Source: Methylobacterium gnaphalii (GTDB lineage: Bacteria; Pseudomonadota; Alphaproteobacteria; Rhizobiales; Beijerinckiaceae). Taken from it: 64,000 bases of DNA. The stretch covers positions 151,232 to 215,231 of the forward strand of contig NZ_BJZV01000006.1 of the NCBI RefSeq assembly GCF_007992215.1, in the 5' to 3' direction. The notes beneath the pieces are model-generated. The model saw only the letters and a program-made list of their open reading frames with translations, did not search any database and was not told the origin of the DNA. Position 1 is the stretch's first letter; each line of letters starts with the position of its first letter. Made by a program: the position numbers and the translations under genes. Below, piece by piece: positions 1,581-48,686 of the stretch.

Positions 1581-1664
1581 GGGCTCGGGAGGCTCCGGCT
1601 GAAGGGGCGGCTTAGTCGCTCGCCCTGTCCATAGCCCGCCTTGCCTCGGACCGTCGAGGGCGGC

Positions 1665-2768
1665 TCACGCCTCTCGTCTGAGCCGTGCCAGCATCTGCTC
1701 CACATGCGCGACCGGCGTCTGCGGCGTGATGCCGTGGCCAAGGTTGAAGATATGCGGCAGGCCTCGTGTCGCCTCTAGGATGGCATCGACCTCGGCGTCG
1801 AGCGCAGCGCCACCCGCGATCAACGTCTCCGGATGGAGATTGCCCTGCGTCACGGTCGTCTCCGGCAGCCGCGTACGCAAGGCGGCAAGGTCCACACCCC
1901 AATCGACGCCGACGGCGCTGGCATGGGTTTCCGGGACGACCCGAGCATGTCCATCGATGCCGGAACCACGGCAGAACACGATGATCTTCGCATCTGGAAC
2001 GCGCGTCCTGACGCCCTCAATCATCCGTGCGATCGGCTGCAACGACCAGCGTGCCAAAGCATCACTGCCTTCTGGCAGGACGCCGGCATGGGATTCGAAG
2101 ATCTGAACCGCATCTGCCCCGGCCTCGAACTGGCGGATGAGGTATTCCGTCTGCACGCGCACGAGCCGATCGATCAAAGCCTCCACGAGACTGGGATCGG
2201 CCGTGGCCAGTGCCCGCGCTGGGGCTAGATCGGGCGTGCCACGCCCACCGATCATGTAGCTCGCCACCGTCCACGGAGCTCCGCAGAAGCCGAGGAGCGT
2301 CGTCTCGTGTGGCAGCCCAGCCCGAATACGCGACACAGCCTCGAAGACCGGCGCGAGATGTGTGAAGATCGCAGGATCATCCACCTCCCGCAGGGCCTCG
2401 AATTCCGCTCGACCGGTGAGAGCATCGAGCCGAGGTCCTTCACCCACGACGAACCGCACACCTTGTCCCAGCGCGTGCGGAACAACGAGGATGTCGGAGA
2501 ACAGGATTGAGGCCTCAAACCCAAAGCGGCGAATAGGCTGTAAGGTCACCTCCGTGGCGAAAGCGGGATTGTAGCAGAGGTCGAGGAAAGAACCGGCCTG
2601 GGCGCGGGTCTCGCGATATTCGGGCAGGTAGCGTCCGGCCTGACGCATCATCCAGGCGGGTGGCGGCGAGATCGCCTCGCCCGACAGCACGCGTAGGACC
2701 TTGCGGTCCTCCGTTCTCACCCCAACCATCACCCGTTCCGATCCTGTCCTCTTTGTAGCGCCAAGCAT
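1665..2768 (-). CDS. hemE: Uroporphyrinogen decarboxylase
   Basis: HemE converts uroporphyrinogen III to coproporphyrinogen III in the cytoplasm. The 367-residue product carries the UroD signatures PPAWMMRQAGRYLPEYR (about 36-52) with the substrate-binding Arg residues, FSDIL (Asp92) and GFCGAPWTVASYMIGG. The listed start gives MLGATKRTG; an internal ATG at 2729 (MVGVRTEDRK) would remove 13 residues and fits the usual family length (about 345) as well. The gene points away from the putative replication origin just upstream, and hemE flanks the origin in Caulobacter, Rickettsia and Sinorhizobium. Confidence 0.95.
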   Translation of the reverse strand: MLGATKRTGSERVMVGVRTEDRKVLRVLSGEAISPPPAWMMRQAGRYLPEYRETRAQAGSFLDLCYNPAFATEVTLQPIRRFGFEASILFSDILVVPHALGQGVRFVVGEGPRLDALTGRAEFEALREVDDPAIFTHLAPVFEAVSRIRAGLPHETTLLGFCGAPWTVASYMIGGRGTPDLAPARALATADPSLVEALIDRLVRVQTEYLIRQFEAGADAVQIFESHAGVLPEGSDALARWSLQPIARMIEGVRTRVPDAKIIVFCRGSGIDGHARVVPETHASAVGVDWGVDLAALRTRLPETTVTQGNLHPETLIAGGAALDAEVDAILEATRGLPHIFNLGHGITPQTPVAHVEQMLARLRREA

Positions 2769-2836
2769 ACAGCCAGGCTTTCCCGCGGGAAGCCTGATCG
2801 TTCAGGCTCGAGGCCTGCCATTCCCACACAGGCCCT

Positions 2837-2880
2837 TTTCTAAAGAGAAAAGAGACTCTTAGACTCTGTTTCTTCTCTTG
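2837..2880. other. AT-rich candidate DNA-unwinding element
   Basis: About 14 of 44 bases are G or C, far below the surroundings. The stretch has purine-rich then pyrimidine-rich blocks and two copies of AGACTCT (2853-2859 and 2861-2867), each containing a GACTC methylation site. It lies 57 bp from the CtrA site. It may equally contain the hemE promoter. Confidence 0.45.
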
Positions 2881-2905
2881 GAGGCTGAGTCATGGGTTCG
2901 CAAAT

Positions 2906-2914
2906 CCATCCACA
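2906..2914 (+). promoter_or_regulatory. DnaA-box-like site
   Basis: CCATCCACA matches TTATCCACA at 7 of 9 positions, with the ATCCACA core intact. It lies in the hemE-RP001-type intergenic region. Confidence 0.4.
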
Positions 2915-2936
2915 GGCCGTCCCCATCGCCACGCCG

Positions 2937-2952
2937 TTAAGAGGGTTTTAAC
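2937..2952. promoter_or_regulatory. CtrA binding site (full consensus)
   Basis: TTAAGAGGGTTTTAAC matches the CtrA consensus TTAA-N7-TTAAC perfectly. In Caulobacter CtrA binds such sites in the origin to block initiation in swarmer cells. Its location inside the putative oriC supports the same role, though it could instead control the hemE or PPDK-regulator promoters. Confidence 0.65.
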
Positions 2953-3139
2953 GGATCAGCTCTACTCTGATGCAATCGCAAGCCGTGTCAGCGGTTTGTA
3001 TGGACATCACGGCCGTTCCGTGCCGAACGGTCCCGGATTCTCCCATTTCGGCGTCGCCACGAGTCCGACTCGACGGATTGTTGACACGGGAGTCGACAAG
3101 ACATCCCTTGCGCTGGCTGGACCGCCACAGGAAGCCGGC

Positions 3140-3148
3140 TTATCCCCA
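3140..3148 (+). promoter_or_regulatory. DnaA-box-like site
   Basis: TTATCCCCA matches TTATCCACA at 8 of 9 positions. A weaker inverted copy (TGGGGACAA, 3174-3182, 7 of 9 on the other strand) lies 25 bp further on. Confidence 0.45.
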
Positions 3149-3228
3149 TTCGTCGACTCCCCAGTGCCAAGCCTGGGGACAAACCGTTCGAGCATGTCGA
3201 GCTCGTTTGCGGGAAAAGCGAATTCGCC

Positions 3229-4059
3229 ATGGGCCGCAGCTACTTCCACCTTCATCTCGTGTCGGATTCGACGGGCGAGACGTTGATCAATGTCGGGCGC
3301 GCGGCGGCGGCTCAGTATGAAGGTGTCTCGGCCATCGAGCATGTCTACCCGCTGGTTCGGTCACGGGCGCAGCTCGAGCGCGTGGTCTCTGAGATCCAGG
3401 CGGCGCCCGGTCTCGTCCTCTACACCCTTGTCGACGACGAGTTGACGTCACGCCTCGCAGAGGCCTGCCGCGAGACCGGATCGCCGACGCTCAACGTGCT
3501 GCAACCGGTGCACGCGCTATTGCGCTCCTATCTTGGAGCGAATTCGACCGCTCGCCCGGGCGCGCAGCACATGTTGAACGCGGAGTATTTCAAGCGCATC
3601 GACGCGATGAACTTCACGCTCGCGCATGATGACGGAAACCTGCCGCCGGATATCGACGAGGCCGACGTGGTACTTGTCGGCGTGAGCCGGACCTCGAAAA
3701 CGCCGACATCGATCTATCTGGCAAATCGCGGCCTCAAGACCGCGAATTTCCCGCTCGTCCCTTCGATGCCATTGCCGTCGGCGCTTGCCGAGACACGGAA
3801 ACCCCTGGTGGTGGGACTGATCGCGTCTCCCGAACGCATCGTCCATATCCGCCAGAACCGCCTCTTGAGCCTGAAGGCCGACGACAACTCGATGTATGTC
3901 GATCGCGATGCGGTCGCCGACGAAATCGCAGCGTCCCGGCGGCTCTGTGCCAAGCAGCGCTGGCCGACGATCGACGTGACGCGCCGGTCGATCGAGGAGA
4001 CTGCGGCCGCCATCCTCGATCTCTATCGCGAGCATCGATTGAAGTTCATCGCGACGTGA
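3229..4059 (+). CDS. Pyruvate, phosphate dikinase regulatory protein (kinase/pyrophosphorylase, UPF0085)
   Basis: The 276-residue product is a full-length DUF299/PPSR protein. It has the N-terminal [10 protein letters not shown] (9-18) and a P-loop-like GVSRTSKT (151-158), the nucleotide-binding signature of this bifunctional family. Family members switch pyruvate phosphate dikinase or PEP synthetase off and on by ADP-dependent Thr phosphorylation and Pi-dependent dephosphorylation. The gene is the homologue of Rickettsia RP001, the neighbour of the origin. It is first in a chain of five genes: its TGA overlaps the GTG start of maf. Confidence 0.9.
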
Positions 4060-4694
4060 ACGGATCGATGGCGGAGTATCAGACAGGGCTCTGGCTTGCC
4101 GAAGCACCTCTCATCCTGGCTTCAGGCAGTCGAACGCGGGCCGAACTTCTGGCCAGTGCCGGACTTGCTGCACAAATCGTCAGGCCTTCGGTCGATGAGC
4201 GAGCCATCGAGACCGAAGCGCAGGGTTTGAGTCCGTCTGATCTCGCCCGTCGTCTTGCGCAAGCAAAGGCGAGAGAGGTTGCAGAACGGCATCCGGGTCG
4301 CATGACGATCGGCGCCGACCAGGTCCTGGATCTCGACGGAGAGGTTTTTCACAAGCCGGCCGATTTAGGTGAAGCTCGGACACACCTGAGCCGGTTGCGG
4401 GGGCGAACCCATGCCCTGCATTCCGCGGTTGCCATCGTTGGCGATGGGATCGGCGAAGTCTTTCATGAGACGGCGCATCTCACCATGCGCGCTCTCGGTG
4501 CGGAGGCGATCGAGGCCTATCTGGCCTTGGCGGGAGAGGATCGGGTGACGTCGAGCGTCGGTGGCTACCAGCTCGAAGGGCCCGGGATTCACCTGTTTGA
4601 GCGGGTTGAGGGAGACCATTCGACGGTGCTCGGCCTGCCGTTGATCCCGCTGCTCGCCAGGCTGCGAGCGATGGGTCTCCTGGCGATCGCATGA
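4056..4694 (+). CDS. maf: Maf family nucleotide pyrophosphatase
   Basis: The 212-residue product has the Maf signatures [12 protein letters not shown] (21-32), GADQVL (86-91) and a following KP (100-101). Maf proteins hydrolyse non-canonical or modified NTPs to monophosphates, a house-cleaning role, and some affect septation. The GTG start at 4056 overlaps the upstream stop in the form GTGA, implying translational coupling; an ATG at 4068 is the alternative start and gives the more usual length. Its own stop overlaps the ATG of the zinc exporter (ATGA). Confidence 0.9.
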
Positions 4695-5665
4695 CGGGAT
4701 TCGGAATGCCGGGCCACGCACACGACGAACATGGTCACCATGATGATCACGGACATCATGGCCATGGACCGGCAGGGCATAGCCACGCGCCAAGGGATTT
4801 CGGCAAGGCCTTCGCCATCGGGATCGCGCTGAATCTCGGATTCGTCGTCATCGAAGCCGGCTATGGAATCCTGAGCAACTCGATGGCGCTCGTGGCCGAT
4901 GCTGGCCACAACCTGTCCGACGTGCTCGGCCTCGCTGCGGCCTGGGTCGCCTCGGTCCTGGTGAAACGGCGGCCGAGCGCGCGCTTCACCTACGGCTTGC
5001 GGGGATCCTCCATCCTCGCGGCCCTGTTCAACGCGGTGTTCCTGCTGATCGCCACCGGTGCGATCATCCTGGAGGCGGTGCAGCGGTTCCTTTCACCGGC
5101 ACCGGTTGCCGGGACGACCGTCATGGTCGTTGCGGGGATCGGCATCGCGATCAACGGATTCACGGCCTGGCTGTTCGCCTCCGGGGGCCGGAGCGACATC
5201 AATATCCGCGGGGCCTACCTGCACATGATGGCGGATGCCGTCGTGTCGCTGGGCGTGGTGCTGTCCGGCCTCGTCATCCTCGCCACCGGCCTCGACTGGA
5301 TCGACCCGCTGGTGAGCCTCGTCATCGCCCTGTTGATCATCTGGAGCACCTGGGGGCTCCTGCGCGACAGCCTCGGCATGGCCCTGTCCGCGGTACCGCC
5401 CGGGATCGATCCTGCCGCGGTTCGCGCAGCCCTCGAGAATCGCCCTGGGGTCGATACCCTGCATGACCTCCATATCTGGTCGATGAGCACCACCGAGACC
5501 GCTCTGACGGCCCACCTCGTCACCCGGCACGAAGCCCTGGCGGACGATTTCCTTCGCGAGACGGCGCGGGAGCTACGTGAGAAGTTCGGCATCGCCCATG
5601 CGACGCTGCAGATCGAGCGGCCCGGCATCGCCGATTGTACCCTGCCGGCGGAATGCGAGGCGTGA
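4691..5665 (+). CDS. Cation diffusion facilitator family Zn2+ exporter
   Basis: The 324-residue membrane protein is of the CDF/CzcD-ZitB type. The N-terminal cytosolic segment (residues 9-32) contains 11 His, a metal-sensing loop common in this family. Six transmembrane helices follow, with the HXXXD metal-site motifs at His73-Asp77 (GHNLSD) and His178-Asp182 (HMMAD), then a C-terminal cytoplasmic domain. It should export Zn2+ (possibly Co2+ or Cd2+) by proton antiport. It overlaps maf upstream (ATGA) and aroE downstream (TGATG). A transporter here is unexpected, because the origin-proximal set in relatives usually runs maf-aroE-coaE directly. Confidence 0.9.
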   Translation: MTGFGMPGHAHDEHGHHDDHGHHGHGPAGHSHAPRDFGKAFAIGIALNLGFVVIEAGYGILSNSMALVADAGHNLSDVLGLAAAWVASVLVKRRPSARFTYGLRGSSILAALFNAVFLLIATGAIILEAVQRFLSPAPVAGTTVMVVAGIGIAINGFTAWLFASGGRSDINIRGAYLHMMADAVVSLGVVLSGLVILATGLDWIDPLVSLVIALLIIWSTWGLLRDSLGMALSAVPPGIDPAAVRAALENRPGVDTLHDLHIWSMSTTETALTAHLVTRHEALADDFLRETARELREKFGIAHATLQIERPGIADCTLPAECEA

Positions 5666-25211: not shown

Positions 25212-26741
<1,530 letters not shown>

Positions 26742-45369: not shown

Positions 45370-47961
45370 ATGACCAGCACTTCCGCCCCCGATCGCCAGA
45401 TCGAGCGCTACAACGCCAAGGATTCCGAGCCGCGCTGGCAGCAGGCCTGGACGCAAGCGCGTCTCTTCGAGACGAAGAACGACGACGGCCGGCCGAAATA
45501 CTATGTGCTCGAGATGTTCCCCTATCCGTCGGGGCGCATCCATGTGGGGCACGTCCGCAACTATGCGATGGGCGACGTGGTGGCGCGCTACAAGCGCGCA
45601 CGCGGCTTCAACGTGCTGCATCCGATGGGCTGGGACGCCTTCGGCCTGCCGGCCGAGAACGCCGCCATGGAGCGCAAGGTCAACCCGCGGGAGTGGACCT
45701 ACGCCAACATCGCCTCGATGCGCACACAGCTGCAGTCCATGGGCCTGTCGCTGGACTGGAGCCGCGAGATCGCGACCTGCGATTCCGACTATTACAAGCA
45801 CCAGCAGCGGCTCTTCCTGGAATTCCTGGACAAGGGCCTCGTCTCGCGCCGCACCGCGAAGGTGAACTGGGATCCGGTCGATCACACCGTGCTCGCCAAC
45901 GAGCAGGTCATTGATGGGCGCGGCTGGCGCTCGGGCGCGCTGGTCGAGCAGCGCGAACTGACGCAGTGGTTTTTTCGGATTTCCGATTTCGCCGATGAGC
46001 TGCTGACCGGCCTCGACGGCCTGGAGCGCTGGCCCGAAAAAGTCCGGCTGATGCAGCGCAACTGGATCGGCCGCTCGGAAGGCTTGGAGTTGCGCTTCGC
46101 GCTCGCCAATCCGCCGGCAGGCACAGAGGACGGTGTCACCGTCTTCACGACGCGGCCCGACACGTTGTTTGGCGCTCGCTTCCTCGCCATCGCCGCCGAC
46201 CATCCGTTGGCGGCGGCTCTGGCCCCGTCGCGCCCCGAGCTGCAGGCCTTTATCGAGGAATGCCGCCGCATCGGCACGGCTCAGGCAGCCATCGACACGG
46301 CGGAAAAGCTCGGCTTCGATACGGGACTGAAGGTCCGTCACCCCTTCGACCCGTCCTGGGAGCTGCCGGTCTACGTCGCGAACTTCGTGCTGATGGAGTA
46401 CGGCACGGGCGCCGTCTTCGGCTGCCCAGCCCACGACCAGCGCGACCTCGATTTTTCGAACAAGTACGGGCTCGGCAATACTCCGGTGGTCTGCCCGGAA
46501 GACCAGGACCCGGCGACCTTCACGATCACCGACACCGCCTATGACGGCGATGGCCGGATGATCAATTCGTGCTTCCTCGACGGCATGACGACGGACGCGG
46601 CCTTCAAGGCGACCGCCGACCGCCTCGAAGGCGAGGGCGTTGCCAAGCGCAAGATTCAGTTCCGCCTGCGCGACTGGGGTGTCTCGCGCCAGCGCTACTG
46701 GGGCTGCCCGATTCCGATCATCCACTGCGAGTCCTGCGGACCGGTGCCGGTGCCTGTCGCCGACCTGCCGGTGAAGCTGCCGGACGAGGTCTCCTTCGAC
46801 GTGCCCGGCAACCCGCTGGAGCGCGACGCCGCCTGGCGCAACGTGCCCTGCCCGCGCTGCGGAGCGGCGGCGCGGCGTGAGAGCGACACCATGGACACCT
46901 TCGTGGATTCGTCCTGGTACTACGCCCGTTTCACGGCACCCTGGCTGCAGGATGCGCCGACGGATCGCGGCGCGGTCGATCACTGGCTCGCCGTCGACCA
47001 GTATATCGGCGGCATCGAGCACGCGATCCTGCACCTGCTCTACTCGCGCTTCTTCATGCGGGCGATGCGCGAGACCGGCTGGGCCGGCGTCTCCGAGCCC
47101 TTCGCCGGATTGTTCACGCAGGGCATGGTCGTCCACGAGACCTACAAGGATGCCGCCGGCGCCTGGGTACTGCCGGCCGAGGTGCGCCTCGAGAATGAGG
47201 GCGGAAACCGCAGGGCCTTCCACATTGGCACGGGCGCCGAGATCAGCATCGGCTCCATCGAGAAGATGTCGAAGTCGAAGAAGAACGTCGTCGACCCGGA
47301 CGACATCATCGCGAGCTACGGCGCCGACACCGCCCGCTGGTTCGTGCTCTCCGATTCACCACCCGAGCGCGATGTGATCTGGACCGAGGAGGGTGTGCAG
47401 GGTGCGCATCGCTTCGTGCAGCGCGTCTGGCGCCTCGTGAACCTCGCTGCGGTGTCCAACGGTCAGACGCAATCGGCCGACGCGGCCCTGCGCAAGGCGG
47501 CCCACAAGGCGCTGGCCTCGGTGGAGGAGGATATCGAGCGGCTGCGCTTCAACCGTTGCGTCGCCCACATCTACACGCTGGCCAATGCCCTCGACGAAGC
47601 CCTGCGCGCAGGCGCGACGCGAGGAGCCGCCGATGAGGCCGCCGGCATCCTGGTCCAGCTCATCGCGCCGATGATGCCGCATCTTGCCGAAGAGTGCTGG
47701 CAGGCGCTTGGCCGGAAGGGTCTGGTGGCCGAGGCTTCCTGGCCGGACGTCGAGCGGGCGCTGCTCGTCGAGGACGAGATCACCCTGCCGGTCCAGATCA
47801 ACGGCAAGAAGCGCGCGGACGTCACCGTTCCGGCCGGCGCCGACAAGGCTGCGGTCGAAGCCGCGACGCTGGCCGACGAGGTCGTGCAGAAGGCGCTGGA
47901 AGGCCGCACGCCGAAGAAGGTGATCGTCGTACCGGGGCGGATCATCAATCTGGTGGTGTGA
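45370..47961 (+). CDS. leuS: Leucyl-tRNA synthetase
   Basis: LeuS charges tRNA-Leu. The 863-residue class I enzyme has HVGH (58-61) in [14 protein letters not shown], the CP1 editing domain with [10 protein letters not shown], the leucine-specific region, and KMSKS (632-636) followed by a tRNA-binding C-terminus ending in [15 protein letters not shown]. Full length. It is followed after 161 bp by lptE; that gap holds a short sequence (ATGCTTCGGTTTCGCTTCGC) reminiscent of the 36.56-kb palindrome but no gene. Confidence 0.98.
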
Positions 47962-48122: not shown

Positions 48123-48686
48123 ATGATGCGGATCGGGACAGGAGAGGCGGCTTCCCGTCTTGTGCGGCTCGCCCTTGCGGCCGGGCTCGCGCTGAACGTC
48201 TCGGCCTGTTTCCGTCCACTCTACGGGCCGACCGCCTCCGGCGAGTCGATGCAGGTGGCCCTCGCGGCCGTGCAGGTCGACGACGTCGTGATGGCACAGG
48301 ATCAGGACCGCCTCGGCCACTACCTGCGCAGCGAGCTGATCTTCGCCCTCGACGGCTCGGGCCAGAATGCGACGCCGAAGCGCTACCGGCTCAAGCTGAA
48401 GGGCAGCGAGACGGTCACCACGCCGATCGTCTCCTCAGCCACCGCCCGCGCCGAGGCCGGCACCCTGATCGGCACGATCAACTACTCGCTGGAGAGCCTC
48501 GACGGCCGCAAGGTCATCACCGACGGCGTCGCCACCTCGACCGCGACCTACGATCGTTCGCAGCAGCGCTTCGCCTCGTTGCGCGCCGCCCGCGATGCCG
48601 AGATCCGGCTGGCCAAGGTGCTGTCCGATCAGATCAAGACGCGCATCGCCTCCGTCCTCGCGGTGATCAAGCCCTCGGGCTCCTGA
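48123..48686 (+). CDS. lptE: LPS-assembly lipoprotein LptE
   Basis: The 187-residue outer-membrane lipoprotein has lipobox VSAC with Cys29 after a hydrophobic signal, followed by FRPLYGPTASG, the conserved LptE start (FRPLYG). LptE plugs the LptD barrel for LPS insertion. Downstream of leuS, as in most alphaproteobacteria, but the usual next gene holA is missing. The ATG pair at 48123/48126 gives a one-residue ambiguity. Confidence 0.9.
   Translation: MMRIGTGEAASRLVRLALAAGLALNVSACFRPLYGPTASGESMQVALAAVQVDDVVMAQDQDRLGHYLRSELIFALDGSGQNATPKRYRLKLKGSETVTTPIVSSATARAEAGTLIGTINYSLESLDGRKVITDGVATSTATYDRSQQRFASLRAARDAEIRLAKVLSDQIKTRIASVLAVIKPSGS

What the first reader, a model, noticed from the sequence alone, without database searches (positions are those of the whole stretch)
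2769..3228. Likely chromosomal replication origin between hemE and the RP001-type gene
Seen: a 460-bp gene-free region with an AT-rich stretch, three DnaA-box-like 9-mers, a CtrA site and a dense cluster of GANTC sites; flanking operons diverge. Known: the origin lies beside hemE and the RP001/UPF0085 gene in Caulobacter and Rickettsia, and beside hemE in Sinorhizobium. Inference: this is oriC of the chromosome.
Basis: partly seen in the sequence, partly recalled or inferred. Interest (0 to 1): 0.8.

Follow-up and report, generated by a model that had tools for sequence, protein, structure and literature searches.

The report
Methylobacterium origin, apart from polarity switch
The gap beside hemE in this Methylobacterium carries a conserved set of replication-control motifs and is likely where chromosome copying starts, yet the short DNA arrows that run along the chromosome arms switch direction near the segregation genes parA and parB, more than 100,000 bases away, which suggests that these arrows follow segregation rather than replication.

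Summary
Window 2769-3228 is a 460-bp gap between hemE (-) and the DUF299/COG1806 gene (+). It is AT-enriched and holds the only perfect TTAA-N7-TTAA site and the densest GANTC cluster of its 215-kb contig. DnaA boxes are weak: one at 1 mismatch, five at 2 or fewer. Of 80 related loci, 79 keep this gap: perfect CtrA site in 76 of 79, GANTC 5-11 in each, and where both occur a TTATNCACA-like box 202-205 bp from the CtrA site in 59 of 68. Predicted oriC is the best reading (0.7).

GC skew is flat, but the octamer GGGSAGGG (KOPS-like) is strongly polar. Its switch lies near parAB and their parS, not at the gap, in 5 of 5 genomes read (gap and parAB 90-426 kb apart). Pooled over 36 genomes, polarity within 10 kb of the gap runs through it, its sign set by the side of parB. 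No origin-like element was found near parB. Weaker parS-like sites do lie nearer the gap. Either the octamers follow segregation (parAB/parS) and not oriC, or initiation has moved near parAB (0.2). Marker-frequency mapping would decide.

The parts
1665..2768 (-). hemE, left neighbour of the predicted origin
   Evidence: TIGR01464 350.7 bits, over cut-off
2769..3228 (.). predicted oriC, 460-bp gap
   Evidence: gap kept in 79 of 80 related loci; a search with window 1600-4700 finds one place in the own genome
2836..2878 (.). AT-rich stretch with two GANTC sites; predicted unwinding element
   Evidence: 67% AT; conserved in the alignment of 26 gaps
2906..2914 (+). degenerate DnaA-like box CCATCCACA
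   Evidence: 2 mismatches; TCCACA lies 20-40 bp before the CtrA site in 75 of 76 gaps that have one
2937..2951 (.). perfect CtrA-type site TTAA-N7-TTAA
   Evidence: 76 of 79 gaps
3029..3045 (+). conserved block GGTCCCGGATTCTCCCA with a GANTC site
   Evidence: alignment of 26 gaps
3140..3148 (+). best DnaA-like box TTATCCCCA; TTATCCACA in many relatives
   Evidence: a box at 1 mismatch or fewer 202-205 bp from the CtrA site in 59 of 68 gaps with both
3174..3182 (-). degenerate reverse DnaA-like box TTGTCCCCA
   Evidence: 2 mismatches; TTATCCACC, TTATCCACA or similar on this strand in several relatives
2854..3159 (.). cluster of 8 GANTC sites (starts 2854, 2862, 2887, 3036, 3061, 3067, 3090, 3155)
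3229..4059 (+). DUF299/COG1806 (PPSR, RP001-type) gene, right neighbour
   Evidence: NF003742 342.6 bits, over cut-off

Best explanation
The 460-bp gap between hemE and the DUF299 gene is the likely replication origin (oriC) of this Methylobacterium chromosome; it lies 150 kb from the parAB genes and their parS sites, and the polar octamer GGGSAGGG switches strand near those, not at the gap. Inferred mechanism: DnaA would bind the degenerate boxes at 3140-3148, 2906-2914 and 3174-3182 and open the AT-rich stretch 2836-2878; phosphorylated CtrA would bind 2937-2951 and block firing; the GANTC cluster would report through CcrM methylation whether the origin has just fired. Inversions have probably moved parAB away from the origin, to either side, 9 to 426 kb in the genus. 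The octamers would then keep pointing from the parAB/parS region along both arms, probably because they serve segregation toward dif rather than mark the replication strand. Shown: motifs, their conservation, the distances, the polarity, a CcrM-like gene. Inferred: binding, firing, the inversions as cause, the reason for the polarity.
For: Location between hemE and COG1806, where Caulobacter's mapped origin lies (PMC1914354, passages read). Gap kept in 79 of 80 loci; CtrA 76 of 79, GANTC 5-11 in all 79, a box at 1 mismatch or fewer in 72 of 79. In M. podarium (L022) hemE and the DUF299 gene are about 9 kb apart and the CtrA site, AT-rich core and GANTC cluster stay beside hemE. In G000, G001, G015, G066 and the sampled G051 the gap is the top GANTC cluster of the 215-440 kb read (level with one other place in G015) and has a perfect CtrA site; other perfect CtrA sites occur, 1 to 2 per genome except G000; no DnaA-box cluster lies near parS. 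The gap is the only non-coding piece that matches in all six pairs of four genomes; none within 25 kb of parB does. Gene orientation between gap and parB, 321 of 620 in the gap-origin direction, fits 0.555 (p 0.06) better than 0.445 (p 0.0003), operon clustering ignored. Further parS-like sites lie on both sides of the gap in G001, G015 and G066. A CcrM-like methylase (N6_N4_Mtase plus RAMA; best NCBIfam match CcrM, 598 bits, under that model's cut-off of 830) is encoded.
Against: The only strong strand-polar signal found switches near parAB: with an assumed 72% polarity the gap is 6.6-19.8 lnL units worse than the best switch point in each of 5 genomes, parS 0-3.8 worse (parS of G051 was not read; its place was assumed from parB); 57 of 174 octamers between them point as a gap origin would predict. 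Pooled over 36 genomes the polarity passes through the gap. leuS also lies within about 10 kb of the best switch in 4 of 5 genomes, so something of the old origin region other than the gap tracks it. DnaA boxes are weak; no IHF site was found; 7 of 79 gaps, six of them Methylorubrum or near it, have no box within 1 mismatch. Preserved gene distance is no help: of ten genome pairs 6 fit the gap better and 4 fit parB better.
Confidence: 0.7

Rival explanations
1. Initiation has moved: the working oriC lies within some tens of kb of parAB/parS, and the hemE gap is a retained CtrA/CcrM-controlled remnant or a regulatory region of hemE and its neighbour.
For: GGGNAGGG octamers are described as running from ori or oriC to dif (PMC13342612, PMC6199493, passages read); here they switch near parAB in 5 of 5 genomes, and their pooled sign at the gap follows the side of parB in 36 genomes. 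leuS lies within about 10 kb of the best switch in 4 of 5 genomes (G000 is the exception). PMC6199493 states that parS is invariably close to the origin.
Against: No DnaA-box cluster and no non-coding element shared by the four genomes compared within 25 kb of parB; the best switch points lie on either side of parB; gene orientation leans the other way; the gap module keeps its spacing although its surroundings are scrambled. The stretch left of mnmG in G000 and the parB stretch of G051 were not read.
Confidence: 0.2
2. The origin lies upstream of dnaA, as stated for M. oryzae.
For: PMC4161386 places the putative origin upstream of dnaA (passage read). 7 GANTC sites lie in the 600 bp upstream of dnaA in G001, as many as in many gaps.
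Against: In G001 dnaA lies at 4.79 Mb inside a one-sided stretch (GGGNAGGG 0 forward, 8 reverse; sampled neighbours 1/5 and 0/4), with no switch; the 600 bp upstream of dnaA in G000 and G001 hold no TTATCCACA-like box at 1 mismatch or fewer and no perfect CtrA site.
Confidence: 0.03
3. The gap is only a divergent promoter region for hemE and the DUF299 gene, regulated by CtrA and CcrM, with no origin activity.
For: The genes diverge; CtrA and GANTC sites also occur in promoters (recalled).
Against: The conserved module spans the gap, with DnaA-like boxes at near-fixed spacing and an AT-rich core; its CtrA site, core and GANTC cluster persist where the DUF299 gene has moved away.
Confidence: 0.07

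Closest known systems
Caulobacter crescentus Cori (hemE/COG1806 origin)
   Same: Same flanking genes, gap of about 400 bp, raised AT content, CtrA TTAA-N7-TTAA site, DnaA-like boxes (criteria from PMC1914354, passages read)
   Different: One perfect CtrA site instead of five sites; weak boxes; no IHF match; dense GANTC; parAB and their parS 150 kb away (recalled: about 8 kb in Caulobacter)
Origins predicted beside hemE in Rickettsia, Wolbachia and relatives (PMC1914354)
   Same: hemE neighbour; CtrA and DnaA sites; GC skew a poor guide
   Different: Those were filed by neighbours and motifs; here an independent polarity signal was tested and points elsewhere
KOPS and GC-skew switch at dif, not at the replication terminus, in P. 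aeruginosa PAO1-UW (PMC6199493, passages read)
   Same: Strand polarity follows a segregation landmark rather than a replication landmark
   Different: There at the terminus end and shown by marker frequency; here the same kind of parting is inferred at the origin end, without marker frequency

Membership tests
Caulobacter-type hemE/COG1806 origin | Gap between hemE and COG1806/DUF299 | tested here: met
   adjacency in 79 of 80 loci
Caulobacter-type hemE/COG1806 origin | CtrA site(s) TTAA-N7-TTAA | tested here: met
   one perfect site; 76 of 79 relatives
Caulobacter-type hemE/COG1806 origin | Several DnaA boxes | tested here: inconclusive
   one at 1 mismatch, five at 2 or fewer; 60 of 2000 shuffles reach five
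Caulobacter-type hemE/COG1806 origin | IHF site (supporting feature; PMC1914354 says that not every genome has every element) | tested here: not met
   no match to two consensus patterns
Caulobacter-type hemE/COG1806 origin | AT content above the genome's | tested here: met
   42.4% in the gap against 32.9% in the window
Caulobacter-type hemE/COG1806 origin | Strand-skew switch at the locus (supporting feature, same remark) | tested here: not met
   GC skew flat; GGGSAGGG switches near parAB
Functional oriC | Replication initiates there (marker frequency, autonomous replication, DnaA footprint) | not testable with these tools
   no reads, no bench; for this reason the gap is called predicted oriC only
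KOPS (FtsK-orienting octamers) | GGGNAGGG-type octamer polar along both arms | tested here: met
   G001 far arms 100 of 114 and 83 of 103; top polar octamers in an 8-mer count on largely the same stretches, so the two are not independent; GGGNAGGG was tried first
KOPS (FtsK-orienting octamers) | Switch at dif and reading by FtsK | not tested
   a cumulative maximum near 3.78-3.86 Mb in G001; dif and FtsK were not searched

The most novel reading that the evidence does not exclude
Methylobacterium is a natural experiment in which inversions have pulled the replication origin and the parAB centromere 9-426 kb apart, and the KOPS-like octamers rebuild their polarity from the parAB/parS site, not from oriC: chromosome arms are written from the segregation origin to dif, independently of where replication starts.
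Probability: 0.5. Interest if true: 0.78.

Novelty: new variant of a known kind. Interest (0 to 1): 0.6.

Why it matters
Strand polarity is routinely used to place origins. Here two standard criteria disagree in a genus, on either side and over many distances, so the question whether polar octamers record replication or segregation becomes testable with one growth-phase sequencing run per species. It also bears on how far the main parS may lie from oriC, and it questions a published origin call upstream of dnaA.

Tried and rejected
GC skew, AT skew and fourfold-site skew: no usable replication signal. Gene-strand bias between gap and parB, 321 of 620: suggestive only. Preserved gene distances over ten genome pairs: 6 favour the gap, 4 parB; that script ended with an error after these rows and one table. 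16S rRNA, rplB and atpA as direction markers: 16S matches in only 8 of 25 genomes (10 candidates scored per genome); of the listed hits over the families' cut-offs none lay between gap and parB on one contig, so none was informative. A conserved origin element near parB: only a short block upstream of lptE and genes that my simple gene caller had missed matched. Family-wide DNA search with the gap: 4 of 60 genomes, the two strong ones being the own genome and G008, so primary sequence does not carry far. The gap flanks pooled over all 80 loci, without regard to parB, gave no clean pattern: hemE side 68+/117-, DUF299 side 118+/143-. One search was a first version of the flank count with an incomplete tie table (33 genomes); one search replaces it and agrees. 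One search took 67 of the 80 loci (13 left out: one Methylobacterium and loci of other genera); 31 of the 67 had parB on another contig.

Literature: the listings of searches (no paper) showed no report of parAB far from oriC in Methylobacterium nor of a KOPS switch at parS; most subscription papers are not held, so this is not proof of absence. That oriC lies beside hemE in Sinorhizobium, Brucella and Agrobacterium is recalled.

Full report
Identity and place. The window is G000:C6:151232-215231 of a 4.78-Mb, 120-contig draft. The closest named relatives of the DUF299 protein are Methylobacterium sp. C25 and M. brachythecii, both 98%. hemE (1665-2768, -) and the DUF299/COG1806 gene (3229-4059, +) flank a 460-bp gap; a maf-like gene, a CDF transporter, aroE, coaE and dnaQ follow on the right, hemJ on the left.

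The observation. The gap is AT-enriched (57.6% GC against 67.1%), has the contig's only perfect TTAA-N7-TTAA site and its densest GANTC cluster. Shuffles reach 8 GANTC in 19 of 5000 and a perfect CtrA site in 0 of 5000. DnaA boxes are weak: one at 1 mismatch and five at 2 or fewer, with 60 of 2000 shuffles reaching five. No IHF site matched the two patterns tried. Five ORFs that overlap the gap have no Pfam match.

Conservation. Of 80 related loci (the best 80 of 206), 79 keep hemE and the DUF299 gene around a gap of 356-787 bp. In these 79 a perfect CtrA site is present in 76, a TTATNCACA-like box at 1 mismatch or fewer in 72, and GANTC numbers 5-11 (median 7). In the 68 with a CtrA site and a forward box, the two start 202-205 bp apart in 59; TCCACA lies 20-40 bp before the CtrA site in 75 of 76. 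An alignment of 26 gaps shows, in order, an AT-rich core, a TCCACA box, the CtrA site, GGTCCCGGATTCTCCCA, and a TTATCC(A/C)CA box followed by TCGACTCC, with single rows departing. The 80th locus, M. podarium L022, has hemE and the DUF299 gene about 9 kb apart; the CtrA site, AT-rich core and GANTC cluster lie beside hemE (draft assembly).

GC skew is flat over G001 (Methylobacterium sp. 10, a 4.97-Mb contig sampled at 60 places), and fourfold sites give no leading-lagging difference of use. An 8-mer count over distant arms picks GGGGAGGG (83 against 12) and GGGCAGGG (101 against 23) as the top polar octamers: the KOPS-type motif. In G001 the cumulative minimum lies at about 1.132 Mb, near parB (1.137 Mb) and a parS (1.136 Mb, 1 mismatch); the hemE gap is at 1.0476 Mb. 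In G000 the most likely switch is at 13-45 kb of contig C6, with parB at 3.9 kb, parS at 2.5 and 2.7 kb, and the gap at 154 kb. That contig begins at mnmG, so the left side of its switch is thin: four reverse sites, two of them overlapping.

More genomes. In 111 genomes of the genus the DUF299 gene was found in all and parB in 110; both lie on one contig in 69. parB lies on the hemE side in 42 of these and on the DUF299 side in 27, at 9 to 426 kb and in either orientation. G051, G015 and G066 were read around both loci (G051 in 20-kb stretches every 32 kb, with parB itself between stretches, so that its parS was not seen and its place was assumed). In all five genomes the most likely switch is far from the gap and nearer parS: lnL relative to the best point, with an assumed polarity of 72%, is 0 to -3.8 at parS and -6.6 to -19.8 at the gap; 57 of 174 octamers between the two agree with an origin at the gap. 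The best points lie on either side of parB, from about 13 kb before it (G015) to perhaps 41 kb after it (G000), so they do not pin parS exactly. leuS lies within about 10 kb of the best point in four genomes, but not in G000, where it is some 150 kb away.

At the gap itself. Within 10 kb of the gap, 36 genomes could be tied to a side of parB. With parB on the hemE side (22 genomes) the octamers are 52+/26- on the DUF299 flank and 16+/11- on the hemE flank (the latter weak); with parB on the DUF299 side (14) they are 15+/33- and 6+/22-. By genome, 15 plus, 5 minus, 2 equal against 0 plus, 12 minus, 2 equal (Fisher 3e-5; related genomes are not independent). Pooled, polarity thus runs through the gap, its sign set by where parB is.

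Is there an origin near parB? Within 25 kb of parB in four genomes no non-coding piece is shared by all, while the gap matches in all six pairs (G000 has only about 4 kb left of parB). TTATCCACA-like sequences at 1 mismatch near parS are single: one 2.4 kb away in G001, one 10 kb away in G000, none within 15 kb in G015 or G066. The one short conserved block lies upstream of lptE. Upstream of dnaA there is no box and, in G001, no polarity switch, against the M. oryzae statement (PMC4161386, passage read).

Further parS-like sites. Besides the sites at parAB, sequences within 2 mismatches of TGTTTCACGTGAAACA lie 36 kb from the gap in G000 (1 mismatch), 14 kb in G001 (2), 80 and 65 kb in G015 (1 and 2), and 20, 45, 53 and 81 kb in G066 (2, 1, 1, 1); one more of 1 mismatch lies 13 kb from parB in G066 and one of 2 mismatches 54 kb from parB in G015. 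None was seen in the sampled stretches of G051 or in 1.08 Mb of distant G001 sequence. If ParB binds them, the gap sits inside a wide parS-bearing zone; this fits an origin there and softens the picture of a centromere far away, but it does not move the octamer switch.

Interpretation. Two criteria conflict. The gap has most of what a Caulobacter-type origin has and keeps it under heavy rearrangement; the octamers mark the parAB neighbourhood. PMC6199493 (passages read) found that the GC-skew switch, mirrored by KOPS, lies at dif and not at the replication terminus in P. aeruginosa, and concluded that segregation and replication are largely uncoupled. The same logic at the other end, octamers pointing away from the main segregation site, explains the results here without moving the origin. 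The rival, initiation near parAB, explains the octamers directly but leaves the conserved gap module and the lack of a found element near parB unexplained. Gene orientation between the two leans to the gap but is weak. I give 0.7 to the gap, 0.2 to parAB.

Control of firing, inferred. G000:C5 encodes a protein with N6_N4_Mtase and RAMA domains whose best NCBIfam match is CcrM (598 bits, under that Caulobacter-based model's cut-off of 830); among 14 control genomes the RAMA search rings only in Caulobacter. CtrA, FtsK and dif were not searched.

Noticed in passing
L022 6113-16687: In M. podarium the hemE and DUF299 genes are about 9 kb apart; the CtrA site, AT-rich core and GANTC cluster stay with hemE.
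   Followed up: partly
window 45370-47961 and 48123-48686: leuS and an lptE-like gene, whose matches lie within about 12 kb of parB in G001 and G066 (leuS also in G015 and G051), are here about 193-195 kb from parB and 42-45 kb from the gap: the old origin region is scattered.
   Followed up: partly
G000:C6:118449; G001:C1:1033761; G015:C1:4448659; G066:C2:4676159-4777326: parS-like sequences with 1-2 mismatches away from parAB, some nearer the hemE gap than the parAB sites; whether ParB binds them is unknown.
   Followed up: partly
G000:C7:89466-91684: A weak DnaA C-terminal match beside a second ParB-family gene; possibly another replicon or an integrated element.
   Followed up: no
G066, G028, G083, G007, G018, G029, G099, G043, G095: Weak atpA-family matches that look like rho (name recalled, not tested) lie about 8-12 kb from the DUF299 gene on the hemE side in these genomes, but within about 3 kb of parB in G052 (= G001) and G010.
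   Followed up: no
window 25218-26738 (G000:C6:176449-177969): atpA lies about 22 kb to the DUF299 side of the gap, pointing away from it, as in G015, G077 and several relatives.
   Followed up: no
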